Shown piece after piece: positions 27,537 to 56,463 of a stretch of DNA of 63,236 bases; position 1 is the first letter of the stretch, and each line of letters starts with the position of its first letter. This DNA comes from Brevundimonas sp. (lineage in GTDB: Bacteria > Pseudomonadota > Alphaproteobacteria > Caulobacterales > Caulobacteraceae). Below the pieces are notes generated by a model that worked only from the letters and a program-made list of their open reading frames with translations, had not been told where the DNA came from and made no database searches. The DNA is taken from NCBI RefSeq assembly GCF_004210735.1, contig NZ_SDZL01000009.1, positions 1-63,236 of the forward strand. The letters run 5' to 3'. Both the position numbers and the translations under genes were made by a program.

Positions 27537-29600
<2,064 letters not shown>

Positions 29601-29656: not shown

Positions 29657-29771
29657 CATGGTCGGTTCAGCGCGCGCTGAGCGGATCAGTGAGCGCCCAG
29701 CTTGTGCCAAGGGGCCAGAATGGCTTAGCAACCTCCCACCTTTGTCTACCCCGACGTCAATTGGAAACCAG

Positions 29772-31663: not shown

Positions 31664-32280
31664 ACCGGTCTGTCCTGTTGATCGGTGGCGGCGGGCATGC
31701 ACGCGTCGTGCTCGACGGCCTTCTGGCCATGGGCCGCTTCTGCCTCGGCGTAACCGCGCGTGAGGCGCCGGATCTAACCGACCTGGCCTATATCGGCGAC
31801 GACGAGGCGGCCTTCCGGCGCTTTCCTCATGGAACCGAGGCGGCACTGGGTCTGGGCGGCACGCCGCGTCAGGGCGCTTCGGGGACGGCGCTGCGTCGGC
31901 GGGTCTATGACCAGTATGTCGAGCGTGGATTTCACTTTCCCCCGGTGGTCGGGCGCGGCGTCATCATGGCGCCCGATGTTGTGCTGGAAGACGGCGCTCA
32001 GGTGATCGCCGGCGCGATCCTGCAGCCCAACGTGCGCATTGGACGCAACGCCATGATCAATACCGGCGCGCGCGTGGATCACGATACGGTGGTGGGCAGC
32101 CACGCCATGGTCGCGCCGGGCGCGATCCTCTGCGGCGGCGTGGAGATCGGCGTCGGGGCCTATATCGGCGCGGGCGCAACCGTTTTGCAGGGAGTTCGCA
32201 TCGGCGCTGACGCCGTCGTGGCGGCCGGAGCGGTCGCCACCGCCGACCTGCCGGACGGTGGATATGTGAGCCGGCGATGA
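31660..32280 (+). CDS. NeuD/PglD-type sugar O- or N-acyltransferase
   Basis: 206 residues. The N-terminal nucleotide-sugar domain begins VLLIGGGGHARVVLDGL, and the second half is a left-handed beta helix of hexapeptide repeats with the catalytic histidine in NTGARVDHDTVVGSH. Relatives O-acetylate sialic acid (NeuD) or N-acetylate the 4-amino group of UDP-sugar precursors (PglD, LegH). The LegH role, acetylating the LegC product, suits this locus best. Four-base overlaps join it to neuB and to the 2-epimerase gene. Confidence 0.88.
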   Translation: MNRSVLLIGGGGHARVVLDGLLAMGRFCLGVTAREAPDLTDLAYIGDDEAAFRRFPHGTEAALGLGGTPRQGASGTALRRRVYDQYVERGFHFPPVVGRGVIMAPDVVLEDGAQVIAGAILQPNVRIGRNAMINTGARVDHDTVVGSHAMVAPGAILCGGVEIGVGAYIGAGATVLQGVRIGADAVVAAGAVATADLPDGGYVSRR

Positions 32281-33443
32281 GCGGACGCAAGATCCGTATC
32301 GGTGTGTTTACCGCCACGCGGGCCGAGTATGGGTTGCTGTATCCAGTTCTCTCGGCGATGCGTGAGTCTGAACGGTTGGAGGCGGTTCTGATCGTCAGCG
32401 GGACCCATCTGTCGCCTGATCATGGCATGACGATTGCCGAGATTGAAAACGACGGACAGACCATCGCTGCGCGCATTCCTATCCAGCAACCAGGCGACGA
32501 CGGCCTCTCCGTTGGGCTGGCGATGGCTGCAGCGCTCAAGGGCTGCGCCGAGGCGTTCGACACTCTGGATCTCGACGCCGTCCTGCTATTGGGCGACCGG
32601 ACCGAACTATTGAGCGCGGCCGCTGCGGCTACGGCCCTGCAGTTGCCGATCCTGCACCTTGAGGGTGGTCATGTGACCGAGGGGGCGGTGGACGACGCCG
32701 TTCGCCACGCGATCACCAAGCTGGCGGCCCTGCATTTCACAGCGGCCGAGCCCTACCGTCAGCGGATCATTCAAATGGGCGAGGATCCCGAGCGGGTGTT
32801 CACCGTCGGCTCCACCGGGCTTGACAATCTGATGGCCGAAGGCGTGCGTTCGGTCGACGAAATCGGCGCCGAGATCGGCCTGGACCTGTCGCCGGCCTTC
32901 CTGTTGGTCACCTTTCATCCTGAGACCCTGGGGACCCAAGCGCCCGAGGTTCAGATGGCGGCCCTGCGGCAGGCGCTGGACAGCTTGTCCGACTTCAAGG
33001 TGCTGTACACCCTGCCGAACGCGGATGAGGGCAACAAGGCGATCCGTCGGGCGATCGCACACCATGTCGCTGCCGCGTCTGACCGCGTCTTCGCTGTCGA
33101 ATCCTTGGGCCGGCGGCGGTACGCATGGGCCCTTTCCGCAGCGGCCGCGGTGGTCGGAAATTCCTCCAGCGGCGTTATCGAGGCCCCGGCGCATCGCGTG
33201 GCGACGATCAACATCGGCGATCGTCAGCGGGGGCGATTGCGCGCGACCAGCGTCCTGGATGTGCCTGCCGAGGCCGACGCCATCAGCGAGGCTATACGCC
33301 AGGGGGTCAGCCCTGAGTTTCGCCACCTGATCCGCAATCAGATCAATCCCATGGGGGATGGCGTGGCGGGCCGTCGGATCGTCGAGATCCTGGAGACCGC
33401 GACCTTTGAAACGCTGGGCCGAAAGCGCTTCCGCGACCTCTAG
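32277..33443 (+). CDS. neuC: UDP-N-acetylglucosamine-type 2-epimerase, hydrolysing (NeuC/LegG)
   Basis: 388 residues of the GT-B-like epimerase fold: RIGVFTATRAEYGLLYPVL, LLLGDRTELLSAA, LHLEGGHVTEGAVDDAVRHAITKLAALHF, VTFHPETLG and a VGNSSSGVIEAP nucleotide-phosphate loop. These enzymes release UDP while inverting C2, giving the free mannosamine-type sugar that NeuB uses. LegG would be the specific name if the substrate is the bacillosamine derivative made by LegB and LegC. Its stop overlaps the convergent oxidoreductase gene by 4 nt. Confidence 0.92.
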   Translation: MSGRKIRIGVFTATRAEYGLLYPVLSAMRESERLEAVLIVSGTHLSPDHGMTIAEIENDGQTIAARIPIQQPGDDGLSVGLAMAAALKGCAEAFDTLDLDAVLLLGDRTELLSAAAAATALQLPILHLEGGHVTEGAVDDAVRHAITKLAALHFTAAEPYRQRIIQMGEDPERVFTVGSTGLDNLMAEGVRSVDEIGAEIGLDLSPAFLLVTFHPETLGTQAPEVQMAALRQALDSLSDFKVLYTLPNADEGNKAIRRAIAHHVAAASDRVFAVESLGRRRYAWALSAAAAVVGNSSSGVIEAPAHRVATINIGDRQRGRLRATSVLDVPAEADAISEAIRQGVSPEFRHLIRNQINPMGDGVAGRRIVEILETATFETLGRKRFRDL

Positions 33444-37725: not shown

Positions 37726-38904
37726 TCAGGCGATGGCGGTCGACGTCATCAAGGATGGGCTGGACGGGATGTTGAGCAAGCGGTTCTCGATGTCACGTGC
37801 GACGGTCAGATCGCCGTACCGCAGAGAGTCCTTCAGGTAGGGCAGGTCGACCATCAGGGTCCAGCACGGACGCGCTTCGATCCCCTCGGCATGAAGGGCT
37901 TCCAGGGCATCGTTACGGGCGGTCAGGTCCGGCAGCATGATCGCCTGAAGCCAGTAGTTAGAACGGATGCCGGCGGCCTCCTTGACGAATTGCGCGTCAG
38001 CGCAGCCTTGGAACAGAGCCTCGTACCGGTCGGCCAACTCGCGTTTGGCGCGAATGAAACCGTCCAACTGCTCCATCTGCGCCAACCCTAGGGCGGCGTT
38101 CAGATTGGGCATTCGGTAGTTGAAGCCCATTTCGTCATGGAAGAAGGTCCAGCCACGCTTGGCCCGAGCTGTAGTTGTCAGGTGCTTCAATCGGACGGCC
38201 AGAGCCTCGTCATTGGTGACGATCGCGCCGCCGCCGCCGGTGGTGACCACCTTGTTGCCGTTGAAGCTGAGCGCCGCGGCGACGGATAGCGAGCCCGCTT
38301 GGCGTCCGTCGCGGGACGCGCCGAGGCTCTCGGCCGCGTCCTCGACCACGACGACGCCGTACGCTGCGCAGATTTCGGACAGTCGAACGACATCTATGAC
38401 CTGCCCGAAAATGTGCACGGGCAAGGCCGCCCGAACGCGCTGTCCTTCGTACCAGACCCCGTCGACCCGTCTCTCGCAAGCCTGAAGAAAGCGTTCGACC
38501 TCGGCCAGGGATAGCCCCAGGGTATCCAGATCCGAATCCAGGAACACTGGTTGCGCGCCCGTGTAGAGGACCGCGTTCACGGTGGCGACGAAGGTGAGCG
38601 CCGGGCAAATCACCAGGTCGCCGTGTCCGACGCCCAGCGTGTGAAGCAGGGCGTGGATCGCAGCTGTGCCGTTCATCGTCGCCACGCCGAAGGCGCAGCC
38701 CGACCGGCGAGCCACTTCGTTTTCGAACTGCACGACATAATCGCCGACCGAAGAGACGTAGGTGCTGTCGATGCAGTCGGCGACATAGTCTTTTTCCCGT
38801 CCCCCGAAAGTCGGGGCGTGGAGAGGGACGCGACCTTGTTGGCCAAGATCTTCGCGCAGGAAGGAGGCGAGCCGCTTGACGGCGGAGGACGAGTAAGCGG
38901 TCAT
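37726..38904 (-). CDS. legC: LegC-type sugar aminotransferase (DegT/DnrJ family)
   Basis: 392 residues from ATG 38904, placed 1 nt after the legB stop. Upstream in-frame starts lie inside legB. Family marks are VPLHAPTFGGREKDYVADCIDSTYVSSVG, the cofactor region ATMNGTAAIHALLH, EDAAESLGAS and SFNGNKVVTTGGGGAI with the PLP lysine. LegC-type enzymes aminate C4 of the UDP-4-keto-6-deoxy sugar made by LegB. The pair forms a two-gene minus-strand operon. Confidence 0.9.
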   Translation of the reverse strand: MTAYSSSAVKRLASFLREDLGQQGRVPLHAPTFGGREKDYVADCIDSTYVSSVGDYVVQFENEVARRSGCAFGVATMNGTAAIHALLHTLGVGHGDLVICPALTFVATVNAVLYTGAQPVFLDSDLDTLGLSLAEVERFLQACERRVDGVWYEGQRVRAALPVHIFGQVIDVVRLSEICAAYGVVVVEDAAESLGASRDGRQAGSLSVAAALSFNGNKVVTTGGGGAIVTNDEALAVRLKHLTTTARAKRGWTFFHDEMGFNYRMPNLNAALGLAQMEQLDGFIRAKRELADRYEALFQGCADAQFVKEAAGIRSNYWLQAIMLPDLTARNDALEALHAEGIEARPCWTLMVDLPYLKDSLRYGDLTVARDIENRLLNIPSSPSLMTSTAIA

Positions 38905-38905
38905 G

Positions 38906-39901
38906 TCAGACGTTGTAGCGCCCCGTCTTGTACAGTTTGAGGTTCTCCGGGTTGGTGAACCATTCGATGGTCTCCGACAGACCGCGGCGCAGCCCTTCAA
39001 CGCCGCCGTAGCCGGGGGTCCAGTCGAGCAGTTCCCGAGCGCGGGAATTGTCAGCCCACAGACGTTCGACCTCGCTGGCGCTGGGTCGGACGCGGGCAGG
39101 GTCGAGTTGAACATCGGGCTCGACTCCGACCAGCTTGCAGATCTCGGTCGCCAGATCGCCGATCGAAATTTCGAAATCCGATCCCAGGTTGATGGTCGAT
39201 CCGGCGGGCGCGCGCTCGATGCCGGCGATCATGCCGGCGACGGTGTCCTTCACGAAGTTGAAGTCCCGCGTTGGGGTCAGGGCGCCCAACTGGATGTGGC
39301 CATTGTTGGCGATGGCCTGGCTGATGATGGTGGGGATGACGGCGCGGGCCGACTGGCGCGGGCCATAGGTGTTGAACGGCCGGCAGACGAACAAGTCCAT
39401 GTCGAAAGACCGATGGAAGGAAAGCGCCATCTGGTCCGCACCGATCTTGGACGCCGCATACGGCGATTGGGCTTCCAACGGGTGGCTCTCGTGGATCGGA
39501 ACGGACTGGGCTGTGCCGTAAACCTCGGATGTCGAGGTGTGGAGCATGCGCGAACCATTGGCGCGTGCAGCTTCAAGCACGTTCAGGGTGCCGATGACGT
39601 TAGTCTCCACGTAAGAGCGCGGCGCTGCGTAGGAGTAGGGAATGGCGATCAAGGCGGCCAAGTGGAAGACCATGTCGCAGCCCTTGATCGCCTGCATGCA
39701 AGTCGACAGGTCACGCACGTCACCGGAAATCGTCTCGAACTGGCCGGCGACGTCGGGTGCGCAATTGTCCAGCCAGCCGTCGGAGTTGAACGAGTTGTAA
39801 AGGGTCATGGCGCGCACTTCGTGTCCGGCGCGGACAAGCGCCTCCGTCAAATGCGAACCGATGAAGCCGTCACCACCGGTAACGGCGATTTTCTTACCCA
39901 T
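38906..39901 (-). CDS. legB: LegB-type NAD-dependent UDP-GlcNAc 4,6-dehydratase
   Basis: 330 residues from ATG 39901, which has GGAG 8 nt upstream and begins the Rossmann motif directly (MGKKIAVTGGDGFIGSHL). Short-chain dehydratase residues are HTSTSEVYG and SPYAASKIGADQM, the extended-SDR Ser-Tyr-Lys set, plus RPFNTYGPRQSARAVIPT. It removes water from a nucleotide-activated GlcNAc to give the 4-keto-6-deoxy intermediate for LegC. The LegB type retains configuration, which points to legionaminic rather than pseudaminic acid. Confidence 0.9.
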   Translation of the reverse strand: MGKKIAVTGGDGFIGSHLTEALVRAGHEVRAMTLYNSFNSDGWLDNCAPDVAGQFETISGDVRDLSTCMQAIKGCDMVFHLAALIAIPYSYAAPRSYVETNVIGTLNVLEAARANGSRMLHTSTSEVYGTAQSVPIHESHPLEAQSPYAASKIGADQMALSFHRSFDMDLFVCRPFNTYGPRQSARAVIPTIISQAIANNGHIQLGALTPTRDFNFVKDTVAGMIAGIERAPAGSTINLGSDFEISIGDLATEICKLVGVEPDVQLDPARVRPSASEVERLWADNSRARELLDWTPGYGGVEGLRRGLSETIEWFTNPENLKLYKTGRYNV

Positions 39902-40062
39902 TAAGATCTCCAGGAATTTGCCGGCTGTGACGCCGACCTTCATAGCTCGATGTCATTTAACATTCGCGTCGCAAAATCCCATCCACATTAGATTGAAAAC
40001 TGCGTTGCGTTCGGGAGACCAAAAACTTAGTTGCCTAGTATCTTTTTCCAGTAGGCCTTTGA

Positions 40063-41033: not shown

Positions 41034-42077
41034 TCAGACCTTGCGGCGATTGGCGGCGTAGAGGATTAGGCCCAGGGTCAACATGGCCATGCTGCTGACG
41101 GTCGCGTAGGCCAGGGAAACATCGTGGCTCTCATAGGTCGTGAAATAGGCCGAGCGGAGATGCTGCAGGGCGTTTAGGAGCGGATTCAGCAACAGGGGTT
41201 TGGCGATAAAATCGGGCAGCTGTTCGGTGACGAACAGGACGCCGGATGAGTAGATCAGAAGGCGGGCTGTCCAAGGCACGCCGCGTTGTAGCACAGGAAC
41301 ATAGGCGCACAGGGTGCGCAGGATGATCCCGAGCGAGAACGCCATTACCAGGATGACGCACCACGTGAGCAGCACGTCCACGGGCCGCTCGACGGGGGCG
41401 CCCAGGCCAAACAGGCCCAGGAACATCAGGACTGCAATGCCGGCCAGGGTGTAGATCACTCCATAGGCGAGGGCGCGGCACGCCAGAATATCGACGGCTC
41501 GGATGCGCGGTATCAGGATCAGCGACTCGTCGACAGGGCCGACGGCGCAGCGGATATAAGTCATGCGGAACATGAACCATGCCGAGGTTCCGACGACGGC
41601 GAACGGCAGGGGGTCCATGTCGACGATGTTGGTGTACCCAAGCGCGAGATAGATGGCCAAGATGATGCCGATCTGCATCAGAGGCTCGATCACGATCCAC
41701 ACGGATGCGGCGGGGCCTGCGCGGCGTAGCAGCAAAAGCGTCCGTAGCGTCAGGGGCGCCAGGGTCTGCAGTCGACTCAGCGGGGGCGCGGGCGGAGCGG
41801 CCACCATCACCGTGTCGAGCGAGGGGTCGATCTGCGCCGCGGGAAGGTCTTCGGACCAATCGCGGACCCTGCCCCCTACAAGATCCAGCTCATAGGAACG
41901 GATCGCGGCATTGAGGCTGCGGACCGTGTTCTTGGCGCCGGCGGCAACGCGAGACGGCAGCTTGCGTAAGCTGTCGCGTCGCTGCGCCCGCAGGCTTTGA
42001 TAGATGGCGGCGCGTTCCTTGCCGGTTTTGGCAAGCGACGCCTCAACGGCGCGCCGAACGGTGTCGTACTCGCTCAT
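41034..42077 (-). CDS. KpsM-like ABC-2 capsule export permease with N-terminal extension
   Basis: 347 residues from ATG 42077, overlapping the upstream gene stop (ATGA). About 115 residues of charged, soluble sequence precede the permease, unlike the near-direct start of KpsM. The core has six hydrophobic segments (VWIVIEPLMQIGIILAIYLAL, LPFAVVGTSAWFMFRMTY, and others) and ends AANRRKV. Relatives pump capsular glycans using KpsT. It is encoded apart from the export operon, together with two large putative glycosyltransferases. The extension might interact with the ATPase-less KpsT relative. Confidence 0.82.
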   Translation of the reverse strand: MSEYDTVRRAVEASLAKTGKERAAIYQSLRAQRRDSLRKLPSRVAAGAKNTVRSLNAAIRSYELDLVGGRVRDWSEDLPAAQIDPSLDTVMVAAPPAPPLSRLQTLAPLTLRTLLLLRRAGPAASVWIVIEPLMQIGIILAIYLALGYTNIVDMDPLPFAVVGTSAWFMFRMTYIRCAVGPVDESLILIPRIRAVDILACRALAYGVIYTLAGIAVLMFLGLFGLGAPVERPVDVLLTWCVILVMAFSLGIILRTLCAYVPVLQRGVPWTARLLIYSSGVLFVTEQLPDFIAKPLLLNPLLNALQHLRSAYFTTYESHDVSLAYATVSSMAMLTLGLILYAANRRKV

Positions 42078-44101
42078 GCCGACACGCCCATCCAGACCCG
42101 CGTTTCGTTCCGCGACACCTGTTCGAGCGCCTTTCCGCGCCAATAGGGGTCCTCCGGAGCCATGGCGGTGATGATCCGATCCGCCGCCCCATGGTCCAGC
42201 AAATGGGGATTCTGCTGGAAATAGACCTCTCGGGTCATCTCCAGACTCTGCCGTTCAGGCCCGCATACGAAAAAGTCGCTAAGAATTCTCTTGGCGTCTT
42301 CCGCCGTTTCGGCTGTGAGCGCGACGCCCAAGCGGGTAAAATCGACCGGTACATCGACCCCCGGATTTATGATCAGGACCGGCATCCCGTGCTGGGCCGC
42401 CCGCATGGCGACGTTGCTGACGACTGTGCACAGCACCGCATGATCCATCAATGCCGAATGCGTGCCGCCGGCAGGAAGAATCTTGCTGGCGACACCTGGC
42501 CAACGCTCGAGGATCGCACGAGACCGTGCAATGTCGGAGGCCGTTTCGTCAGGATGAGGCGACACTGACAGAACGACATCACCGAGGGCGCTGCAGGCGG
42601 CGGCCACCATATCGAGGGCGGCGGCCGAGACGTCATCTAACGGCTGCGAGGCGAATATTACGCTGCGGGGGGGCGTTGCATGGTGGTCGCGGTCATTGTT
42701 CTGACCGATATCGACGTGACCGGCGAAGATGAATTGCTCGGACGCAACGCCGAAGCGCGTCTGGAAGATGTCGCGCTGCGAATCGTCCAGAACGCCGACA
42801 CGTTCGGCCACGGGCATAGGGTCGCGGTCCGAGGTGCCGATCATCAGGGTTTGCAACTCGACGGTGGGCGCCTCGGCCGCGCGTGCGGCCGATACGATCA
42901 GTCCTCCGAAAGGGGAGCCAAGGGGCACGGAGGCGACGAAGCGGGGACGTTGCCGCGCAAACTGGCGACTGATTTCTGAGGCCAGGACCAGGCTCGGTCC
43001 CAGGCTCGACACTATGAACGCGCCGCACCCCTCAAGGATCGCGGCCCGTTGGCCAGTCGTGAACCTGAATTCCAGGGCTTGATCGATTTGCTTCAGCAAG
43101 AGTGTGCGGACCCCGGCTAGCGGGGTGCGGGACTGCGAGGATTGCGGTTGCCGGACAAGGAGCGTCTTGGCGCCCAGCGCGGCGGCCGCGCCGGTCGCCC
43201 GGACGACGTTGCTGGTGCGCCGGGTGAAGGGTTGGATCAGAACTGATCCTTGAGAGGTAGCGGCCGCCAGTAGCGCCCGCACCGTCTGACTGTGTCGGAA
43301 TTCAATCTTCCGGCGCAGGTCGCCCACGATCACAGCCTTGTCCTCGACATCGAGCCGCCCGGGTTTCCACTTTTCCGCCGCCGTGGCAAATGCGGCCCAT
43401 GCGTCCTCGGCGCGAACATCAGCCGAACTGTCTCTTCGGGCGACGAAACGGGCGGCCCCCCGCCGACCAGTCGGGCCTAGATCGTGCGTGACCGCAATCC
43501 CGGCAGCGCGGAAGTGCGCCTCTAGGTCATCCACGGGATCGTCGCCTTCGATCAGATGAACGACGCGTGCGCCCATGGTCCGAGCGGCGTCATCCGCGAT
43601 CTCCAGTCGGCGCAGTCTCAGAGCGAGTTCAGGCTTTAGCCTGAGCATCAGGGCGTTGCGGTGAGTGCGGATCAGAGCGTTCCACGGTGGCGGCGCTGCT
43701 GTCTGCATGACGTCCAGCGCCAGTTCGGCGCCGGCCTTGGCGGTTGTGTACCAGGTCTCATTGAGCGACCGGCGGCGCGGGTCCCGACACATGCCCAGGC
43801 CAAGGCCCGAGAAATCAAGCAGATCGCTCGCCTGGTCATCTGAAAACCAGTCCGCCACGTCAGCATCGACGTTCGGGCCGATCACGCAAAGGCGCGGGCC
43901 GGCGGCTGCGAGGAAGGTATCAACCGCTTGGCGGGCCGATCGGAGCTTTCGCGAACCGGACGGCAGTCGCGAGGCGAACAGGACATCGGACAGTCGACGG
44001 CGTCGGGCCCGCAGAGTGGAAGCGACGGGACAATCTATGATCCGTCTTATACAGGCGTCAGCGCCTTCCTCACTGCCGGCGGAAGCTTCCGCTTGCGTCA
44101 T
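42074..44101 (-). CDS. Putative capsule-type glycosyltransferase, 675 residues
   Basis: Soluble and without a signal peptide. The C-terminal half carries GT-B-like motifs seen in capsule and epimerase-fold transferases: VIFASQPLDDVSAAALDMV, SVSPHPDETASDI and CTVVSNVAMRAAQHGMPVLIINPG. The N-terminal half (residues 1-330) includes VIGDLRRKIEFRHSQTVRALL and is not recognised. It overlaps kpsM downstream and the 726-residue gene upstream by 4 nt each, so the three genes form one operon. Sugar specificity unknown. Confidence 0.6.
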   Translation of the reverse strand: MTQAEASAGSEEGADACIRRIIDCPVASTLRARRRRLSDVLFASRLPSGSRKLRSARQAVDTFLAAAGPRLCVIGPNVDADVADWFSDDQASDLLDFSGLGLGMCRDPRRRSLNETWYTTAKAGAELALDVMQTAAPPPWNALIRTHRNALMLRLKPELALRLRRLEIADDAARTMGARVVHLIEGDDPVDDLEAHFRAAGIAVTHDLGPTGRRGAARFVARRDSSADVRAEDAWAAFATAAEKWKPGRLDVEDKAVIVGDLRRKIEFRHSQTVRALLAAATSQGSVLIQPFTRRTSNVVRATGAAAALGAKTLLVRQPQSSQSRTPLAGVRTLLLKQIDQALEFRFTTGQRAAILEGCGAFIVSSLGPSLVLASEISRQFARQRPRFVASVPLGSPFGGLIVSAARAAEAPTVELQTLMIGTSDRDPMPVAERVGVLDDSQRDIFQTRFGVASEQFIFAGHVDIGQNNDRDHHATPPRSVIFASQPLDDVSAAALDMVAAACSALGDVVLSVSPHPDETASDIARSRAILERWPGVASKILPAGGTHSALMDHAVLCTVVSNVAMRAAQHGMPVLIINPGVDVPVDFTRLGVALTAETAEDAKRILSDFFVCGPERQSLEMTREVYFQQNPHLLDHGAADRIITAMAPEDPYWRGKALEQVSRNETRVWMGVSA

Positions 44102-48362: not shown

Positions 48363-49076
48363 ATGATCGGTTCTGAACGGTGCATCGCCGTTATCCCCGC
48401 GCGCGGGGGATCCAAGAGCGTCAAGCTCAAAAACCTGCATGACCTGGGCGGCAAACCTTTGCTGCAATGGCCTATCGAGGTGGCGCTCGCCACTCCGGAG
48501 ATCGACCGCGTGATCGTGTCCACCGATCATGAGATGATCGCTGAAGTGGCGGAGAAGCTGGGAGCGGAAGTGTCTTGGCGGCCTGAAGAGCTGGCGTCCG
48601 ACACAGCCATCGTGGCCGACGTCTTGCGGCACCTGATCGGGGATCTGCGCGCGAAGGGAGAGACGGCGCGCTACTTGACCCTGCTCGAATGCACGGCCCC
48701 GTTTAGATTGCCGCGTGATGTGACTGAATGCCTCCAGCGTCTTCACGCTGAAGGGCTCGATTCCGTCGCGACCTTCACGGATGCGCATCTGAATCCGCAT
48801 CGAGCCTGGCGCTTGGATGACAACGGCGCGCCGACGCCGTTTATCGACGGCGCCATTCCTTGGCTTCCGCGTCAGGCTCTGCCGCGCGCCTATCAGTTGA
48901 ATGGGGCGGTGTACGCCTTCGTCATTGATGCGCTGAAACCCCATACGCCGTCGATCCTGTTCGGTCGGGCCGGCGCTGTCATGATGAATCGTGAACGGTC
49001 CTTCGATATCGATGACGCCCAGGACTTCGCCGTCGCCAATGCCCTGCTCGCCGCGGGCAAGGTGCCGTTGGGATGA
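48363..49076 (+). CDS. neuA: NeuA/LegF-type CMP-nonulosonate cytidylyltransferase
   Basis: 237 residues. The CTP-binding start is IAVIPARGGSKSVKLKNLHDLGGKPLL (the N-terminal consensus with catalytic Arg and Lys), followed by VIVSTDHEMI, LLECTAPFRLPRDV and YQLNGAVYAF. It activates the nonulosonic acid with CMP for glycosyl transfer. It follows a putative glycosyltransferase gene by 46 nt and overlaps the next oxidoreductase gene by 4 nt. Confidence 0.92.
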   Translation: MIGSERCIAVIPARGGSKSVKLKNLHDLGGKPLLQWPIEVALATPEIDRVIVSTDHEMIAEVAEKLGAEVSWRPEELASDTAIVADVLRHLIGDLRAKGETARYLTLLECTAPFRLPRDVTECLQRLHAEGLDSVATFTDAHLNPHRAWRLDDNGAPTPFIDGAIPWLPRQALPRAYQLNGAVYAFVIDALKPHTPSILFGRAGAVMMNRERSFDIDDAQDFAVANALLAAGKVPLG

Positions 49077-49987
49077 CGTTGCGGGTCGGTATCCTCGGCT
49101 TCTCCGAGGGCAATGGTCACCCTTTTTCGTTCAGTGCGATCGTCAACGGCTATGACGATACGGCATTCGCTCGCGTTGGCTGGGACGGTATTCACGCCTA
49201 TCTGCGCGCGCGAAAGGCGGACGAGTTCGGCGTCGGTGACGTACGCATCACCCAGTGCTGGATGCCGGACCTCAAGATGGCCCAGGCCCTGGCCGCAGCC
49301 TGTCGGATCGACACGATTTGCCAAGCGCCCGAGGAAATGATCGGCGCTGTCGATGCCGTCATGATTCTGCGGGACGACGCCGACAGCCATTGGTCGCTCG
49401 CTGAACCCTTTCTCAAGGCTGGACTGCCGGTCTTCATCGACAAACCGCTGTGCGTCCGCCGGGACGAGCTTGACCTGTTCGAACCCTATCTGAGATCGGG
49501 ACAACTGATGTCCTGTTCGGGGCTCCGATACGCTGGCGAAACGGATGGCTGGAGGCGGGCGCCGGACCAATTTGGCGAACTGCGACTGATCCGCGCCTCC
49601 GTTCCCATCGACTGGCCCCGGTACGGAATTCACATGCTGGAATGCGCCATGGGCGCTCTAGGCGTCCGGCCGGTCGCCGTGCAACGACACGCCGTCGCAC
49701 ATGGTAGTGTCGCCGTTCGATTGGAAGATCACAGTCTTCTGCTGATCGACGCCTTGGGCGCGACGCCGACGCCTTTTTCCCTCCAAGTATTCGGAGCACT
49801 TGGCAATGCCGAGGTGCAGATACGCGATAACTTTACGGCATTTCGTCGTACGATCATCAACTTCGTAGAGTTGGTACGAACGGGCAAACCGGTGATCGCT
49901 CCTGAGGACACCTTGCTGGTGATCAGGACGTTGATCGCAGGTGTGGAGGCCGAGCCTGGGGGGGCAGAAGTTCTCGTGCGTCCGTAA
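49073..49987 (+). CDS. Gfo/Idh/MocA-like oxidoreductase (third in the locus)
   Basis: 304 residues. The N-terminus (LRVGILGFSEGNGHPFSFSAI) is an atypical Rossmann loop, lacking the tight GxGxxG. DAVMILRDDADSHWSLAEPFLKAGLPVFIDKPLCV is the conserved cofactor-site region with Lys-Pro. The C-terminal domain is short, and RYGIHMLECAMGALG holds the expected histidine. It overlaps neuA, suggesting it modifies the same sugar pathway, perhaps an unusual nonulosonate derivative. Reaction unknown. Confidence 0.75.
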   Translation: MTLRVGILGFSEGNGHPFSFSAIVNGYDDTAFARVGWDGIHAYLRARKADEFGVGDVRITQCWMPDLKMAQALAAACRIDTICQAPEEMIGAVDAVMILRDDADSHWSLAEPFLKAGLPVFIDKPLCVRRDELDLFEPYLRSGQLMSCSGLRYAGETDGWRRAPDQFGELRLIRASVPIDWPRYGIHMLECAMGALGVRPVAVQRHAVAHGSVAVRLEDHSLLLIDALGATPTPFSLQVFGALGNAEVQIRDNFTAFRRTIINFVELVRTGKPVIAPEDTLLVIRTLIAGVEAEPGGAEVLVRP

Positions 49988-51157: not shown

Positions 51158-53404
51158 TCACCAAGCGGTCCAGCCTCCGTCGACTGCAAGCACCTGGCCG
51201 GTGACATAGGCGGACAGATCCGATCCCAGAAACAGGGCCACGCCTTTGAAATCCTCGGGCGTGGCCATGCGAGCCAAGGGGGTTTTGGCGACATAGCGTG
51301 ACTGGAATCGTTCGTCCTGGCCGCGCTCCAGGCCGCCGGGGCACAGGGCATTGACCCGAATATGCGGCCCAAGACTAGTCGCCATCCAGCGGGTCAACTG
51401 CATCAGTCCGCCTTTCGAGGCGGCGTAGCCGGCCGGGTTGCCCGAAGCGGTGCCTTCGTAGAGCCCCCAGTCTGGACCCACCAGACCGTAGATCGAGCCC
51501 ACGTTGATGACCGAGGCTGCCGCCGACCGCTGTAGGCCCGACAGCAGCGCCTGGGTCAGGATGAACGGGGCCACGAGATTGATCTCGGTCGCCGCTCGGA
51601 AGAGGGCCGGTGATTGAGTCTCGAACGGCGTCACCCACCCGTCCGAAGCCGAGGTGCCGACGAATCCTGCATTGTGAACCAGCACATCAATGGTCGGGTG
51701 CCGCATTAGGATGTCCTGGGCCGCCGCGTAGATGCTGTCTTCGTCAGACAGGTCGCAAGACTGGCTCGACAGGCGTCCGTCCCAAGCGCTATCGGCCAGC
51801 ATGTGGGCGGAGCCGTCGAATGCGCGGTCGAGCAGCACAACCGCAGCGCCGCTTTCCAGATAGGCTTCGGCGATGGCGCGTCCGATATGGCCGGCGCCGC
51901 CCGTAACGACGCAAACGCGGCCAGTCAAATCTCCGAGTTGCTGAATGGTCTTCATCGCCGGGCCGGGTGCGGACGTCATCACGGGGGTCTCATGTTTGGC
52001 TGGGGACTTGGACTTGGTTGGAAGCTCTTTCTCGGCGGGCGCAGCAATGAGCGCCTTCAGGGCGTCCTGGCGTTTTCTCACGCTTGTGGCCCAGTTGCTG
52101 ACATAGGCGGCGCGCTCGAGAGTGGCCAAGGCCTGCGCCAACTCGCCCTGATCTTCGTGGGCCTTAGCCTGCCCCAGAAGCACCTGAAGATTGTCCGGAT
52201 CCGCTTCGGCGGCCTTGTGCTCGATCTCGATGCGCTCGGGCGTGCCTTCGGTCAGGCCTTGCGCCAGAGCCATGAGGATATTGGGATCGGTCGAATCGAG
52301 CGCGTTCAAAAGGCGATTGGCTTCCTCGTACTCACCAGCCCGCCGCAGGGCGCTGGCAAGTTTGACGGCGTGGCTCGGTGTGGGAGACAGGCTGTGCAGG
52401 CGCCTCGTAGCCTGCAGGATCTCGGCTAACCTTTTGGTTCGCGCGAGCTCTGCGATATAGGCTTTCAACACTTGGGTGCTTTCAGGCAGTTCTTTGACGG
52501 CCTGCGCCAGAAGGGCCGTCGCATCTTCCTTGCGCTTGAGCGCTTCACGGGCCGCCCAGTAGGTGGCGTTGTGGCCATAATCGTAGAGACGCAGCAAATG
52601 TTGCTCGAAGGTGAAGTCGCCTTCATGCCAGAAGGACCAGCGCCGGTCCTTGGCCCAATTCAGTCCGAAATGGTTCGCGACGGCCGGATGAATGGGGGCG
52701 TCCAGATTTTGGATGCCGACTCCACGGGCCCTCGCGCGCGCCAGCTTCAGGGCGTAATCGCGATCTTGAAGCGGCAGGCGCTCGACGATCTGCTCCAGCA
52801 CATAGGCCATTAGGCCGCCGCCTGGATGATTGGCGGTGCGCATCGTGTGGACGCCGCTCTCGATCTGGTCCCACAGACCGAAATCCGACTTGTCGTCGAG
52901 CTGCTGCGCCTTAGCGGCGTTGATCGCGTGGAGGCGATCCAGCGGGTATTTCTTGCCAATATCGATGGCGAAATAGCTGTCGAGCAACTGGTCCTTGGAA
53001 ACGCCGTCTCCCACCAGGCGAAGCACCAGATCGTCGCATATCGTGTAGGGAAACAGCTTCGTCTTCGTCGCCGAATCTCCGGCGATGCGCCGCTTCTGAA
53101 AAGGGATCTGCGGCCAAAGATAGTTCTGCAGCATCGCGGGATAGCGGATCATGACCGCGTCCGCCGGCAAGTCGTCCTCGGTCAGACGAAAATCGTCCCA
53201 GCCGTGAGTGACCTGCTGGATCACGGCCCGCACCCGCGGACGCAGGGCTTCGAAATTCTTAGTCGGTTGATAGATCAGGACCACGTCATAGTCGCGGCTG
53301 ATCTCAGGCACCGTCATCAGGAAAGCGCGTATGGCCCCGCTTTGGCAGTTCCCCACGCACGCAATGATGGGGCGTTTGCTGTCTTCGACGACGCCCGCGA
53401 TCAT
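51158..53404 (-). CDS. WcbI-domain / TPR / short-chain dehydrogenase fusion protein
   Basis: 748 residues in three parts. Residues about 10-285 resemble WcbI-type capsule enzymes: IACVGNCQSGAIRAFL with the CoA-site GNCQ motif, and TMRTANHPGGGLMAYV. Residues about 290-465 are TPR-like helical pairs (GEYEEANRLLNALDS, QGELAQALATLERAAYV). After a Lys/Pro-rich linker, residues about 490-748 are a complete SDR: CVVTGGAGHIGRAIAEA, NVGSIYGLVG and the Tyr-Lys pair in GYAASKGG. Its start overlaps the acyl carrier protein stop. Burkholderia WcbI binds CoA, so an acyl-transfer role on the glycan is a fair inference. Confidence 0.78.
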   Translation of the reverse strand: MIAGVVEDSKRPIIACVGNCQSGAIRAFLMTVPEISRDYDVVLIYQPTKNFEALRPRVRAVIQQVTHGWDDFRLTEDDLPADAVMIRYPAMLQNYLWPQIPFQKRRIAGDSATKTKLFPYTICDDLVLRLVGDGVSKDQLLDSYFAIDIGKKYPLDRLHAINAAKAQQLDDKSDFGLWDQIESGVHTMRTANHPGGGLMAYVLEQIVERLPLQDRDYALKLARARARGVGIQNLDAPIHPAVANHFGLNWAKDRRWSFWHEGDFTFEQHLLRLYDYGHNATYWAAREALKRKEDATALLAQAVKELPESTQVLKAYIAELARTKRLAEILQATRRLHSLSPTPSHAVKLASALRRAGEYEEANRLLNALDSTDPNILMALAQGLTEGTPERIEIEHKAAEADPDNLQVLLGQAKAHEDQGELAQALATLERAAYVSNWATSVRKRQDALKALIAAPAEKELPTKSKSPAKHETPVMTSAPGPAMKTIQQLGDLTGRVCVVTGGAGHIGRAIAEAYLESGAAVVLLDRAFDGSAHMLADSAWDGRLSSQSCDLSDEDSIYAAAQDILMRHPTIDVLVHNAGFVGTSASDGWVTPFETQSPALFRAATEINLVAPFILTQALLSGLQRSAAASVINVGSIYGLVGPDWGLYEGTASGNPAGYAASKGGLMQLTRWMATSLGPHIRVNALCPGGLERGQDERFQSRYVAKTPLARMATPEDFKGVALFLGSDLSAYVTGQVLAVDGGWTAW

Positions 53405-53649
53405 GCCGACAATTGTGCCTGGACCAGATCGGCCAGTTCGCCCACGTTCTGGACGGTGAAAGCCTGTTCCATCGGCAGTTCGATGGCGAATACGTCTTCG
53501 ACCCGCATCAGCACCATGGTGTGGGCCAGGGAATCCCAGCCGACGATGTCGTTCGCGTTAGTGGTGCGGTCGATGGTCTTGTCAGGGCAACTGAAATGGT
53601 CGGTGATGACAGTCGCCAGTTGACCTAAAATGTCGTCGTTCGTGGTCAT
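53401..53649 (-). CDS. Acyl carrier protein
   Basis: 82 residues with the phosphopantetheine site at Ser40 in IVGWDSLAHTMVL. Acidic helices and a FAIELPMEQAFTVQNVGELADLV end are typical of stand-alone carrier proteins. It sits between the acyl-AMP ligase and the WcbI-TPR-SDR genes with 4-nt overlaps on both sides, so it is surely their partner and not the housekeeping fatty-acid ACP. Confidence 0.92.
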   Translation of the reverse strand: MTTNDDILGQLATVITDHFSCPDKTIDRTTNANDIVGWDSLAHTMVLMRVEDVFAIELPMEQAFTVQNVGELADLVQAQLSA

Positions 53650-55265
53650 GCGAAACCTCCTGACAGATAGCGTTCTCGGTTTCGCTTGCGGTCGACCTTT
53701 CCGCTGGTGGTCTTGATTATTCGACGATCGGAGAAAAGTCGAACGTCGGCGGGACGCAGACCCAGGCTGGCGTCCAGAGTCTGGATGATCATCTTTGCAA
53801 TGGCGTCGGACTCGCCCGAAATTTCGGCTGCGATGACAAGTCGCTCGCTACCGGATTCGGGGTGATGAACGCCCATGGCGACGACCCGCCCCGGCGTTAC
53901 GCCGGGCACGTCTGCGGTCAGTTGCTCGATCTGGTGGGCGTACAGATTGCGGCCTCCGACGATGATCCGGTCGTCCAGCCGTCCGCAGACGAAGAGTTCG
54001 CCGGAATCGATGAAGCCGATGTCGGCTGTCCGATACCAGCCGTTCTGCAGCGCCAAGCTTGTTCGTTCAGGCGCACGAAAATAGCCGTCGAACAGGAACT
54101 CGGCCGCAACTTCGATTTCGCCATAGACTCCATCTTGGCCATCGGCGTCGCGAATGCGGATCTGGCAGCCAGGGATGGCGCGGCCGCAGCCGAGAACGGA
54201 GGCGGCCGCTTCGCCGGGCGAGCACGGCGCGACGGTTTCACCGATTTCGCCGAGCCCGATGGCCGCGACGTGCCGAATCGTGACGGGCGTTCCAGGAGGG
54301 CTTTGCGTCACCGCGAAGACGGTTTCGGCCATGGCGTAGCAGCACGTCAGGCTTCCGGCCGTCACACCGTGTTCAGCATAGCGTGTCAGGAAAGCGGCGA
54401 AGGCATCAGCTTTACAGGGCTCGGAACAGTTGACCCACGCCTTGACACTACCGAGCGCCCAGATGCGATTAGTGCGTCGAACGGCGCGTTCCAGGTGTCG
54501 GAAGGCGAAATTGGGTAGCCAGACATGGGTGGCGCGGCGCTGTTCGATCACCTCGAACAGCGACTGCGGATTGGCCGTCCAGTAAAACGGATCGATGAAG
54601 TTCACCTCTGCGCCGAATGTCAGCGGCAGCATCAGGCAAGCGATCAAGCCCATGTCGTGGTAGAGGGGCAGCCAAGATGCGATGATGCTGTCGCCGTCGA
54701 ATTCGACGGCTTCCGCATAGGCGCGCAGTTGAACGTCAATCGCGCGATAGCTGAGCGGCACGCCCTTCTTCAGACCCGTCGTGCCTGAACTGTGCTGCAG
54801 AAGAGCGACGGCCGTCCCAGCAGGGCGCGCCGGCAAGGGCGATGCGGCCAGGCTGTCAATTTGCTCGCTCGCCAGAAGCGTCAAGCTGATGGCCGGGCAT
54901 TCCTGACGAATGGCGTCCACGGCGGTCTGGGGGGCTAGAACCGCACCCTGGCCCAGGTGATCGAACAGGGCTGCGTGACCGCTCCAGAACGCCTGATCGT
55001 CGAAGCGCGCTGCGGGCAGCGGCATGAAGGAGGGCGCCAATCCGGCGCGCATAGCCGCTATGAAGCTGATCACTGCATCAGGATTATTCGCGCCGAATAT
55101 CAGAAGCGGCGCGCCCTCCAGGCCAAGGGCGGCGAGGCGCATCGCCCGCTCGCCCGTTCTCGACCACAGTTCACTGTACGTTAGTTCTACGCTCGTCTGG
55201 CTCCAGCGCAGGGCGACGTGATCAGCTCTCTCAAGTGCGTGTCGTTCAACTTGCTCCAGAAACAT
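53646..55265 (-). CDS. Fatty acyl-AMP ligase / AMP-dependent acyl-ACP synthetase
   Basis: 539 residues from ATG 55265; upstream in-frame starts lie antisense to the neighbouring gene. Adenylation motifs are ALLQHSSGTTGLKKGVPLSYR (P-loop), ASWLPLYHDMGLIACLMLPL, CCYAMAETVFAV, GWYRTADIGFIDSGELFVCGRLDDRIIVGGRN and the late TTSGKVDRKRNRERYL lysine. The HDMGL stretch and overall pattern fit fatty acyl-AMP ligases, which load acyl groups on ACPs. It is first in the operon with ACP and WcbI-TPR-SDR. Confidence 0.87.
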   Translation of the reverse strand: MFLEQVERHALERADHVALRWSQTSVELTYSELWSRTGERAMRLAALGLEGAPLLIFGANNPDAVISFIAAMRAGLAPSFMPLPAARFDDQAFWSGHAALFDHLGQGAVLAPQTAVDAIRQECPAISLTLLASEQIDSLAASPLPARPAGTAVALLQHSSGTTGLKKGVPLSYRAIDVQLRAYAEAVEFDGDSIIASWLPLYHDMGLIACLMLPLTFGAEVNFIDPFYWTANPQSLFEVIEQRRATHVWLPNFAFRHLERAVRRTNRIWALGSVKAWVNCSEPCKADAFAAFLTRYAEHGVTAGSLTCCYAMAETVFAVTQSPPGTPVTIRHVAAIGLGEIGETVAPCSPGEAAASVLGCGRAIPGCQIRIRDADGQDGVYGEIEVAAEFLFDGYFRAPERTSLALQNGWYRTADIGFIDSGELFVCGRLDDRIIVGGRNLYAHQIEQLTADVPGVTPGRVVAMGVHHPESGSERLVIAAEISGESDAIAKMIIQTLDASLGLRPADVRLFSDRRIIKTTSGKVDRKRNRERYLSGGFA

Positions 55266-55392
55266 TAGGCGCGAGTCCGGCGGAACGGCGTGGCGATAGG
55301 TATTTGGCCAAACAGAGATTCTGAAAATGTGGCTTGCGCTTGCCGGTGCATCATAACTAGTGGTTTCGAGTTGGTCTGGGCAAAGAACTGGT

Positions 55393-56463
55393 ATGGCGCG
55401 ATTGTTGGCGGCACGGAAGAAGATCGTCGCAATTGGTGATTTTCTGGCGCGCAATCCCGCGTTGCGCGCGGTCGGGCGGCGGACACATTTGCTTTCCCTC
55501 ATGGACGGGGGCATGCGCTTCAGCGCCGCCGCCACCGTAGCTCCGTGGCGCGCGCTGGTTCTCGGTGCGCCGCGCGAAGAACATGACGCCATCGATCGCG
55601 CCTTCCCCGAGTTCAGGAAGCTCTTTGTTGCCAAGCGGGTCAAGACCGGACGGATATATGACGAACTGATCCGGCATCCTGGGACGGCGATCCTGGCCTG
55701 GGGCGTCGCGGCCGGACCGCAACTGGCCAAGCTGCAATCTCGTGGGATCAGCGGCCATCCGGTCCTTTATTTAGACCGTGGGCCGATCGACATCGTCAAC
55801 GAGACGGAGCACCTGCATGGCTATGTTCTGGATTGGACAGGGCTGTACTGCAACTCGCGTCGGACGAGCGATCTTGAGACGATTTTGAACGGGTTTCCCT
55901 TCATCGATCACCCTGAACTTCTGGCCGCCACGACGACCATGATCCGCACGCGGTTTTCCAAAAGCAGTCTTAGCGGGCCGGTCGTGGTCGTCTGCCAACA
56001 TCGATCCGATCCGCCCGCTCTGTTCGCCGGCGCTACTCATCCTGAGGCCGAGGCGCTGATCGAGATGGCCAGCGACGAAAACCCCCGCAGTGAAATCGTG
56101 CTCGTCCAAGTGTGCCCCTCTGGCAGGGCCCAGGCCAAGCATCGCGAGGAATTGGCAAAGCTAGGGAATGTGGCGTCACCCGACGCCGTGCCGACGCTTT
56201 TGACGGGCGCTAGCCGCGTCTATGTCGCGTCCGCCAATCTGGGTTTTCACGCCTTGCTGAGGGGGGTGCCCGTCACCACGCTAGGCGGACCGTTTTACGC
56301 CGGCTGGGGACTGACCGACGACAGGCGTCCCGTTCCGCGGCGTCAGCGTTCCTTGGGTCTCAGCGCGCTGACTGCCGGCGTTCTGGTGCTCTACGGACGG
56401 TTCCTTCGGTCGGGTTCTCTTATTTCGGCTGTATCCGGGGTAGATGCGGAGCCGGCGAAGTGA
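55393..56463 (+). CDS. KpsC-like single-module capsule glycosyltransferase
   Basis: 356 residues from ATG 55393. The KpsC hallmark GGPFYAGWGLTDDRRPVPRRQ is near residue 300, with LLTGASRVYVASANLGFHALL before it. Full KpsC is about 670 residues with two Kdo-transferase modules; this one has about half that length and a single module. In capsule systems these enzymes build the Kdo linker on lipid. Its GTG-start partner, the 858-residue orphan, overlaps the stop codon (GTGA). Confidence 0.8.
   Translation: MARLLAARKKIVAIGDFLARNPALRAVGRRTHLLSLMDGGMRFSAAATVAPWRALVLGAPREEHDAIDRAFPEFRKLFVAKRVKTGRIYDELIRHPGTAILAWGVAAGPQLAKLQSRGISGHPVLYLDRGPIDIVNETEHLHGYVLDWTGLYCNSRRTSDLETILNGFPFIDHPELLAATTTMIRTRFSKSSLSGPVVVVCQHRSDPPALFAGATHPEAEALIEMASDENPRSEIVLVQVCPSGRAQAKHREELAKLGNVASPDAVPTLLTGASRVYVASANLGFHALLRGVPVTTLGGPFYAGWGLTDDRRPVPRRQRSLGLSALTAGVLVLYGRFLRSGSLISAVSGVDAEPAK

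What the first reader, a model, noticed from the sequence alone, without database searches (positions are those of the whole stretch)
51158..55265. Dedicated acyl-loading module (acyl-AMP ligase, ACP, WcbI-TPR-SDR) inside a nonulosonate/capsule locus
Three genes with 4-nt overlaps encode an adenylating enzyme of the fatty acyl-AMP ligase type, a stand-alone ACP with Ser40, and a fusion whose N-terminus resembles the CoA-binding capsule enzyme WcbI. The chain of parts suggests acid activation, loading on the ACP, and transfer from the carrier to a sugar, with the SDR and three sugar oxidoreductases shaping acyl chain or sugar. Known legionaminic and pseudaminic acids carry small N-acyl groups added from CoA donors; an ACP-based route would be a new way to diversify them or to lipidate the glycan.
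Basis: partly seen in the sequence, partly recalled or inferred. Interest (0 to 1): 0.8.

Follow-up and report, generated by a model that had tools for sequence, protein, structure and literature searches.

The report
Carrier-loaded acyl-transfer cassette for capsule sugars
Beside its sialic-acid-like sugar genes this bacterium has three overlapping genes, for an enzyme that likely activates an acid, a small carrier protein predicted to hold it, and a fused WcbI enzyme that would pass it to a surface sugar; the same trio recurs in other bacteria, once with carrier and WcbI fused into one protein, so the carrier is a likely missing partner of the WcbI family.

Summary
Observation confirmed to the base: FAAL-type ligase (53646-55265), lone ACP with Ser40 (53401-53649) and WcbI-TPR-SDR fusion (51158-53404), minus strand, 4-nt overlaps, in a legionaminate-type capsule locus. 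Interpretation partly right. The trio is not a nonulosonate system as such: WcbI with a ligase (or FkbH) and/or ACP recurs in other Pseudomonadota; of 12 such genomes besides the window's, neuB was found on the same contig in 1, elsewhere in 8, not at all in 3. In one genome ACP and WcbI are a single protein, and the Cys/His pair of solved WcbI is conserved. I read this as a portable module in which holo-ACP would feed WcbI; it fits a published puzzle (WcbI binds CoA, shows no activity alone). The nonulosonate link is lineage-specific: the SDR fused to WcbI is of a type found beside CMP-nonulosonate synthetases, and in two metagenomic relatives it is replaced by another SDR, 77% identical to the one heading this window's neuB operon. 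Activity, acyl group and acceptor are untested. ACP-type acyl genes in pseudaminic-acid flagellin islands are in print, so the general idea is not new; a WcbI-ACP link was not found in the papers searched.

The parts
53646..55265 (-). FAAL-type acyl-AMP ligase, 539 aa, predicted loading enzyme
   Evidence: PF00501 E 2.6e-45; best PDB sequence match is FAAL 3pbk; A5-motif-to-CG spacing 45 residues, ungapped against 3pbk
53401..53649 (-). stand-alone ACP, 82 aa, Ser40 in GWDSLAH (codon 53530-53532); one of two PP-binding genes found in the genome
   Evidence: PF00550 over cut-off; own-genome search
51158..53404 (-). WcbI-TPR-SDR fusion, 748 aa
   Evidence: Pfam; same architecture in 5 other protein clusters
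52766..53365 (-). WcbI domain; Cys20 and His193 align with Cys14 and His201 of solved WcbI 4bqn
   Evidence: PF18588 60.5 bits; profile alignment to 4bqn
52043..52567 (-). TPR-like helical repeat region, about residues 280-454
   Evidence: weak Pfam TPR matches; helices with pLDDT mostly 70-90 in the model
51167..51916 (-). C-terminal SDR domain, type A, YAASK active-site motif
   Evidence: PF13561 E 3.2e-42; 51% to the SDR of a Gfo/Idh-NeuA-SDR cassette
29771..30575 (+). SDR type B, first gene of the SDR-neuB-neuD-neuC run; 77% identical to the SDR fused to WcbI in P0005/P0006
30583..31663 (+). neuB (nonulosonate synthase)
   Evidence: TIGR03569 434.6 bits, cut-off 399.65; only NeuB found in the genome
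31660..32280 (+). neuD-type acetyltransferase
   Evidence: TIGR03570 165.1 bits, cut-off 160.8
32277..33443 (+). neuC (UDP-GlcNAc 2-epimerase)
   Evidence: TIGR03568 400.3 bits, cut-off 235.9
37726..39114 (-). LegC-type aminotransferase (ORF span; true start probably inside)
   Evidence: TIGR04181 458.1 bits, cut-off 420
38906..39943 (-). LegB-like 4,6-dehydratase
   Evidence: TIGR04180 451.8 bits, cut-off 475, just below
41034..42143 (-). KpsM-like capsule export permease
   Evidence: PF01061 29.5 bits, cut-off 26.9; NF050053 76.8 bits, below its cut-off of 300
48363..49076 (+). CMP-nonulosonate synthetase (NeuA/PseF-like)
   Evidence: PF02348 E 3e-25; PseF 138.7 bits, below its cut-off of 205.7
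49073..49987 (+). Gfo/Idh/MocA oxidoreductase next to NeuA
   Evidence: PF01408 27.6 bits, cut-off 24
55360..56463 (+). capsule synthesis protein (PF05159 family), divergent from the ligase
   Evidence: PF05159 E 2.9e-12; no NCBIfam match

Best explanation
A FAAL-type ligase, a stand-alone ACP and a WcbI-TPR-SDR fusion are encoded as one overlapping unit that would likely work as a portable acylation module: the ligase is predicted to activate a free acid as acyl-AMP and load it on ACP Ser40, and the WcbI domain is predicted to pass it from the carrier to a capsule sugar. The pantetheine arm of the ACP would enter the cleft where CoA sits in solved WcbI, between Cys20 and His193 (inferred). 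In this lineage the module is coupled to nonulosonate synthesis, because the protein's C-terminus is an SDR of a kind found near CMP-nonulosonate synthetases; the likely acceptor is therefore a legionaminate-type sugar or the glycan that holds it (inferred, weaker). The nature of the acyl group is not known.
For: Shown by calls: (1) ligase, ACP and WcbI as neighbours in G218, G278, G227, G738, G1131, G1181, G1076; WcbI divergent from ligase-ACP in G820; FkbH-ACP-WcbI in G563. (2) One ORF with PP-binding and WcbI domains in G849, ligase just upstream. (3) Close WcbI loci from three profile surveys: 7 of 12 have an ACP and 9 of 12 an ACP or loading enzyme within 1.5 kb, against 0 of 20 and 1 of 20 for remote WcbI-like loci (Fisher p 2.4e-4 and 7e-5; the line between close and remote was drawn after seeing the scores). 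(4) Cys14/His201 equivalents conserved in 9 of 9 WcbI aligned and invariant in alignments of 10 and 11. (5) The ACP is one of two PP-binding genes found in the genome. (6) The ligase keeps the inter-motif length of FAAL 3pbk. (7) SDR: the 5 relatives opened all lie within 8 kb of a CMP-nonulosonate synthetase gene; in P0005/P0006 the fused SDR is another one, 77% identical to this window's neuB-operon SDR.
Against: No activity, acyl group or product is known. The only solved WcbI binds CoA, so CoA may remain the donor in some members. Close WcbI genes also occur without ACP or loader in the stretch seen: G424, G1121:C28, G1076:C151 (a 3.5-kb contig) and the window genome's second WcbI; G577 has a ligase but no ACP was found. 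The ligase clade also occurs without WcbI: 6 of 10 close family members, G094 for example. With the independent Pfam model alone, 3 of 6 loci outside the window's genome have a loader or ACP, 2 of 6 an ACP. Profiles A3/A4 include WcbI sequences found through the ligase, which favours such loci. The ligase's best NCBIfam row is named a CoA ligase, below cut-off. The AlphaFold model is too weak in the WcbI part to test the fold (pLDDT 62, pTM 0.36).
Confidence: 0.52

Rival explanations
1. WcbI is a CoA-dependent acetyltransferase as first proposed; ligase and ACP are co-inherited but do a different job in the same polysaccharide locus.
For: Solved WcbI carries CoA, and CoA raises its melting temperature by about 10 degrees (PMC4104973 Discussion). 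WcbI genes without ACP nearby exist.
Against: Recurrence of the trio beyond the family, at order, class and phylum distance, the ACP-WcbI fusion, the FkbH-ACP-WcbI variant, and the failure of three published assays with acetyl-CoA.
Confidence: 0.2
2. The trio builds or attaches a lipid end that anchors an ABC-exported capsule or O-chain, rather than decorating a sugar inside the glycan.
For: FAALs classically act on fatty acids (established knowledge). The window has a KpsM-like permease and a PF05159 capsule protein; ABC-type export ORFs read by eye stand near the trio in G218 and G820. In L005 a WcbI gene lies beside a PKS-like ORF and an oxoamine-synthase-like ORF (my reading, not scanned).
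Against: The SDR fused to WcbI resembles SDRs of sugar cassettes. One variant uses FkbH, whose known product class is a C3 glyceryl-ACP (recalled), not a fatty acyl.
Confidence: 0.2
3. The SDR acts on the ACP-bound acyl chain (3-oxoacyl reduction), so the fusion both reduces and transfers it.
For: FabG-like scores (NF009466 131.4 bits, TIGR01830 125.2 bits, both below cut-off), a YAASK motif, physical fusion to the transferase.
Against: Best scores are to gluconate/glucose dehydrogenase and NF006619 (flagellin-modification PtmA type by recall), all below cut-off; the stand-alone relatives opened lie near CMP-synthetase genes. No chain-extending ketosynthase was seen among the 30 proteins scanned at 22-61 kb, apart from a marginal ketoacyl-synthase match (21.2 bits, cut-off 20.8) inside the thiolase at 27606. 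The other fused SDR matches the neuB-operon SDR.
Confidence: 0.08

Closest known systems
WcbI of the Burkholderia heptan capsule (PDB 4bqn/4bqo; PMC4104973)
   Same: Same Pfam family over cut-off; Cys14 and His201 conserved as Cys20 and His193; capsule locus.
   Different: Here followed by TPR and SDR domains and placed behind a dedicated ligase and ACP; the paper describes CoA binding, no activity, and proposes a partner that presents the acceptor.
Fatty acyl-AMP ligases (3pbk, FadD family)
   Same: Adenylation domain, inter-motif length, closest solved sequence.
   Different: Stand-alone and paired with a stand-alone ACP in a glycan locus; below the NCBIfam FAAL cut-offs, and the best NCBIfam row is a CoA-ligase model, also below cut-off.
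Aeromonas group II polar-flagellin glycosylation islands (PMC7874193, passages read)
   Same: ACP, 3-oxoacyl-ACP reductase and AMP-dependent synthetase between pseudaminic-acid genes; the authors suggest a liposugar component.
   Different: Those islands also hold LuxE and LuxC; no LuxC/LuxE match among the 30 proteins scanned here, and WcbI instead, in a capsule-type locus.
Gfo/Idh - CMP-synthetase - SDR cassettes (e.g. Sulfitobacter faviae plasmid, L138)
   Same: SDR 51% identical; same neighbours NeuA and Gfo/Idh as in the window at 48363-49987.
   Different: There the SDR is a separate gene; here it is the tail of the WcbI protein.

Membership tests
WcbI family (PF18588) | Pfam match over the curated cut-off | tested here: met
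   60.5 bits, cut-off 29.2, residues 14-213
WcbI family (PF18588) | Cys/His pair that holds the acyl-CoA head in the crystal | tested here: met
   Profile alignment to 4bqn puts C20 on Cys14 and H193 on His201; conserved in 9 of 9
WcbI family (PF18588) | WcbI fold | tested here: inconclusive
   Model pLDDT under 50 in much of the domain; the structure rows cover only the SDR
WcbI family (PF18588) | binds CoA | not testable with these tools
   needs protein
Fatty acyl-AMP ligase | closest to FAALs, not to acyl-CoA ligases | tested here: inconclusive
   PDB: best row FAAL 3pbk, 5 more FadD23/28/32 entries among the top 16, first plain CoA ligase at row 17. NCBIfam: best row is a CoA-ligase model, rows 2-3 an ACP ligase and a fatty acyl-AMP ligase, all below cut-off
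Fatty acyl-AMP ligase | FAAL-specific insertion between the A5 motif and the following CG | tested here: met
   45 residues, ungapped against FAAL 3pbk; length only. My pattern found the stretch in 4 of 9 trio ligases (45, 43, 43, 43), in the other 5 it did not match
Fatty acyl-AMP ligase | curated NCBIfam FAAL model over cut-off | tested here: not met
   NF006624 234.4 bits against 600, so it is filed as FAAL-type, not as a named FAAL
Acyl carrier protein | PP-binding domain with phosphopantetheine serine | tested here: met
   PF00550 30.5 bits, cut-off 20.8; Ser40 in GWDSLAH
Acyl carrier protein | converted to holo form | not testable with these tools
   one AcpS-type gene found in the genome
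PtmA-type SDR (NF006619) | NCBIfam model over cut-off | tested here: not met
   149.5 bits (whole protein) and 153.4 bits (SDR alone), cut-off 255
PtmA-type SDR (NF006619) | genomic company of CMP-nonulosonate synthetase | tested here: met
   5 of 5 opened relatives, out of 25 rows listed; NeuA and Gfo/Idh beside it in the window
Legionaminic-acid pathway | LegB, LegC, NeuC-type epimerase, NeuB-type synthase | tested here: inconclusive
   LegC, NeuC, NeuB over cut-off, LegB 451.8 against 475; stereochemistry cannot be told
Aeromonas group II flagellin island | LuxC and LuxE beside the ACP genes | tested here: not met
   none among the 30 proteins scanned at 22-61 kb

The most novel reading that the evidence does not exclude
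WcbI-family enzymes are acyl-ACP-dependent glycan acyltransferases, and the ACP is the partner missing since the WcbI structure; loading enzymes (FAAL or FkbH) are interchangeable cartridges that choose the acyl group, and in this lineage the transferase has been welded to a nonulosonate SDR so that one protein both finishes and acylates a legionaminate-type capsule sugar.
Probability: 0.4. Interest if true: 0.75.

Novelty: new variant of a known kind. Interest (0 to 1): 0.6.

Why it matters
WcbI is needed for a capsule but has shown no activity, and its authors proposed that it needs an unknown partner. A recurring loader-ACP-WcbI grouping and a natural ACP-WcbI fusion name a candidate partner and make the question directly testable in harmless bacteria. 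It would also show how bacteria could diversify capsule and sialic-acid-like sugars by swapping loading enzymes, and it offers a reason why a sugar-pathway SDR is fused to a putative acyltransferase.

Tried and rejected
AlphaFold on the fusion with 10 rows gave pLDDT 62 and pTM 0.36; the structure comparison listed only SDR folds, so WcbI and TPR folds were not tested; no listed row is WcbI 4bqn. phmmer of the WcbI domain alone found no PDB chain at E up to 10; only the profile did. The genome-contig scan found one distant relative, L005. L070's 'GSC' protein and L072's 'GNCH' protein between ACP and ligase looked WcbI-like by eye, but neither is a hit of the WcbI profile and L072's has no Pfam family; not counted. 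Plasmid search with the ligase gave one record, in a context without glycan genes by its annotation. Idea that the thiolase at 27606 supplies the acyl chain: ordinary acetyl-CoA acetyltransferase scores, dropped. Paper search for Cj1307/Cj1308 (recalled Campylobacter ligase and ACP names) found 0 papers, so this precedent is recall only. Mirror-tree correlations (WcbI-ligase 0.81, WcbI-ACP 0.58, ACP-ligase 0.43, n = 9) seem driven by three related loci (G1131, G1181, G1076) and are not used as proof. Not in print: 'WcbI' with 'acyl carrier protein' gave 1 paper, unrelated by title and abstract start; 'fatty acyl-AMP ligase' with 'capsule' gave 7, none on this by title and abstract start; the other eight searches listed no paper on it that I recognised; only the open-licence library was searched. 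Papers: PMC4104973 outline, passages and Discussion; PMC7874193, PMC4875605, PMC3765264 and PMC13130089 passages only; all others listing only.


Full report
What is there. The window is placed at G000:C139:1-63236 of a 2.83-Mb draft genome. The genus is probably Brevundimonas, an inference: a same-genus contig of 66,303 bases (L067) has the length listed for a protein named Brevundimonas sp. (P0122). On the minus strand lie a 539-aa AMP-binding protein (53646-55265), an 82-aa ACP (53401-53649) and a 748-aa protein (51158-53404), each overlapping the next by four bases. Pfam gives AMP-binding, PP-binding, and WcbI followed by weak TPR matches and an SDR. The ligase's best PDB match is FAAL 3pbk; of the top 16 rows 6 bear FAAL or FadD23/28/32 names and 10 bear others such as polyketide synthase or acyl-CoA synthase, and the first plain CoA ligase is row 17. 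The spacing between its A5 motif and the next CG is 45 residues, without a gap against 3pbk. It is below every NCBIfam cut-off shown, and the best NCBIfam row is a CoA-ligase model. In this genome the search found two PP-binding genes (the other on contig C155, presumably the housekeeping ACP) and one AcpS-type gene, and one ligase of this kind at E 1e-40 or better, with 3 of 14 first-look candidates scored.

Setting. Over their cut-offs are NeuB, NeuD, NeuC and LegC; LegB is just below; a CMP-nonulosonate synthetase, two Pfam-supported Gfo/Idh oxidoreductases, a KpsM-like permease and a PF05159 capsule protein complete a legionaminate-type capsule locus. Only one NeuB was found in the genome, so flagellin glycosylation could share it.

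Rare in the genus. In 131 genomes of the genus, profile A1 matched the WcbI part only in the window's own genome, at two places; the other matches start at profile position 248 or later, mostly in the TPR part.

The trio recurs. The ligase searched in 390 genomes of the family gives 10 places at E 1.5e-80 or better (at most 3 candidates scored per genome in the rows shown). By profile, 4 of these 10 have WcbI next to ligase and ACP: the window, G218, G278 (two WcbI) and G227; the rest do not (G094 has ligase-ACP only; G138, G145, G133, G039 have an ACP nearby; none was seen for G387). Three surveys then started from WcbI: PF18588 in 385 genomes of the class (7 genomes with matches), profile A3 in 398 genomes of the order (17) and profile A4 in 398 genomes of the phylum (10 at E 1e-6 or better); each figure includes the window's genome, and samples overlap. 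PF18588 rang in 0 of 14 control genomes. Leaving out the window's own genome and G218 (already known through the ligase), and counting neighbouring WcbI copies on one contig as one, there are 12 close WcbI loci (HMM score of 90 bits or more, or cut by a contig end): G577, G563, G424, G738, G820, G849, G1131, G1121:C10, G1121:C28, G1181, G1076:C151 and G1076:C11. Within 1.5 kb 7 of 12 have an ACP and 9 of 12 an ACP or loading enzyme; G820's ACP lies a little further off, making 8 of 12. The 20 remote WcbI-like loci (under 75 bits) from the same surveys have 0 ACP and 1 FkbH-like neighbour; 18 of them were seen only to 1.5 kb, two were opened wider (G161:C14, G034) with the same result. Fisher tests: p 2.4e-4 and 7e-5; for the 7 close loci not in profile A4, 5 of 7 with an ACP against 0 of 20, p 2.6e-4. 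The line between close and remote was drawn after seeing the scores. By the independent Pfam model alone, 3 of 6 loci outside the window's genome have a loader or ACP, 2 of 6 an ACP. The A3/A4 profiles contain sequences found through the ligase, so the larger figures lean towards such loci.

Fusion and variant. In G849 the ligase is followed by one 438-aa ORF that contains a PP-binding domain (residues 77-143) and a WcbI domain (166-370). In G563 the ligase is replaced by FkbH (TIGR01686, 305 bits, cut-off 146.65) before ACP and WcbI; FkbH proteins load glyceryl units on ACPs (recalled). Gene order varies: ligase-ACP-WcbI in G218, G278, G227, G738, G1181; ACP-WcbI-ligase in G1131 and G1076; WcbI divergent from ligase-ACP in G820. 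Nine ACPs of ligase-bearing loci share Gly-Trp-Asp-Ser and a His three residues after the Ser; G738's, not among the nine, has Ser for the Gly.

Mechanism. In solved WcbI, CoA sits in a cleft with its head between Cys14 and His201; three assays found no acetyltransferase activity, and the authors propose a partner that presents the acceptor (PMC4104973; passages and the Discussion read). Both residues are conserved here as Cys20 and His193 and in 9 of 9 aligned members. The simplest reading is that holo-ACP offers the same pantetheine arm and is the natural donor. This is inference: no contact or activity was tested. Note that the authors' partner presents the acceptor, mine the donor.

The SDR tells the nonulosonate story. 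Ten protein clusters match the fusion among 7997 scored candidates from 5.8 billion sequences, the window's own included: six with an SDR tail, four without. Four of the six share SDR type A. Its best plasmid relative (51%) stands in a nucleotidyltransferase - Gfo/Idh - CMP-synthetase - SDR run. I opened 5 of the 25 rows listed (of 1399 records), five of the six with the highest bit scores; all 5 have a CMP-nonulosonate synthetase within 8 kb. The other two fused proteins (P0005, P0006) carry SDR type B at about the same junction, 77% identical to the SDR that heads this window's neuB operon at 29771-30575 and only 36% to type A. P0007 stops at that junction. So two different nonulosonate-locus SDRs have been fused to the same WcbI-TPR protein; chance co-location is an unlikely cause. 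Equal longest-contig lengths suggest that the relatives keep the trio: 40,317 and 30,999 bases for fusion and ligase, 11,885 for WcbI, ligase and ACP, 5,970 for fusion and ACP (inference from length alone).

But the trio is not bound to nonulosonates. In the 12 other genomes with WcbI plus ACP and/or a loading enzyme (G218, G278, G227, G738, G849, G820, G563, G577, G1131, G1121, G1181, G1076), neuB is on the same contig in 1 (G1121, about 31 kb away), on other contigs in 8, and not found in 3 (G849, G820, G577). Several contigs are short (G227 9.9 kb, G738 11.2 kb), so linkage could be hidden.

Known or new. ACP, reductase and AMP-dependent synthetase genes inside pseudaminic-acid flagellin islands are described in Aeromonas, and ACP and fatty-acid-ligase genes inside flagellin islands of Enterobacteriaceae (PMC7874193 and PMC4875605, passages). 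A WcbI-ACP link was not found in the papers searched (open-licence library only). I therefore call it a new variant of a known kind.

Noticed in passing
L036:13971-15080 (window genome, contig C127:46970-48037 by profile): A second WcbI gene without SDR, ACP or ligase nearby, among LPS-type sugar genes (read by eye); 48% identical to the window's WcbI part.
   Followed up: partly
L135:8942-10255 (G849): Natural fusion of ACP and WcbI in one 438-aa ORF directly behind a FAAL-type ligase.
   Followed up: yes
L137:8921-11969 (G563): FkbH-ACP-WcbI run: the loader is FkbH instead of a ligase, which suggests a glyceryl group; a MaoC-SDR fusion follows.
   Followed up: partly
L005:9632-17095: WcbI gene beside a PKS-like ORF and an oxoamine-synthase-like ORF in a capsule-type locus of a Methylobacteriaceae MAG (read by eye).
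   Followed up: no
L002:8511-10913 and L004:8432-12098: In Mesorhizobium and Sulfitobacter plasmid polysaccharide loci, AMP-binding protein plus ACP stand beside a GNAT or an MBOAT acyltransferase instead of WcbI (record annotation): the loading pair may be a general cartridge.
   Followed up: no
L072:1197-4253 (G039): ACP, a 376-aa protein with a GNCH motif and a ligase in one run in the same genus; the middle protein has no Pfam match and may be a remote WcbI-like enzyme.
   Followed up: partly
window 56460-59036: 858-aa ORF after the PF05159 capsule gene without any Pfam family.
   Followed up: no
window 29771-30575: The neuB operon's SDR is 77% identical to the SDR fused to WcbI in metagenomic relatives P0005/P0006.
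   Followed up: yes
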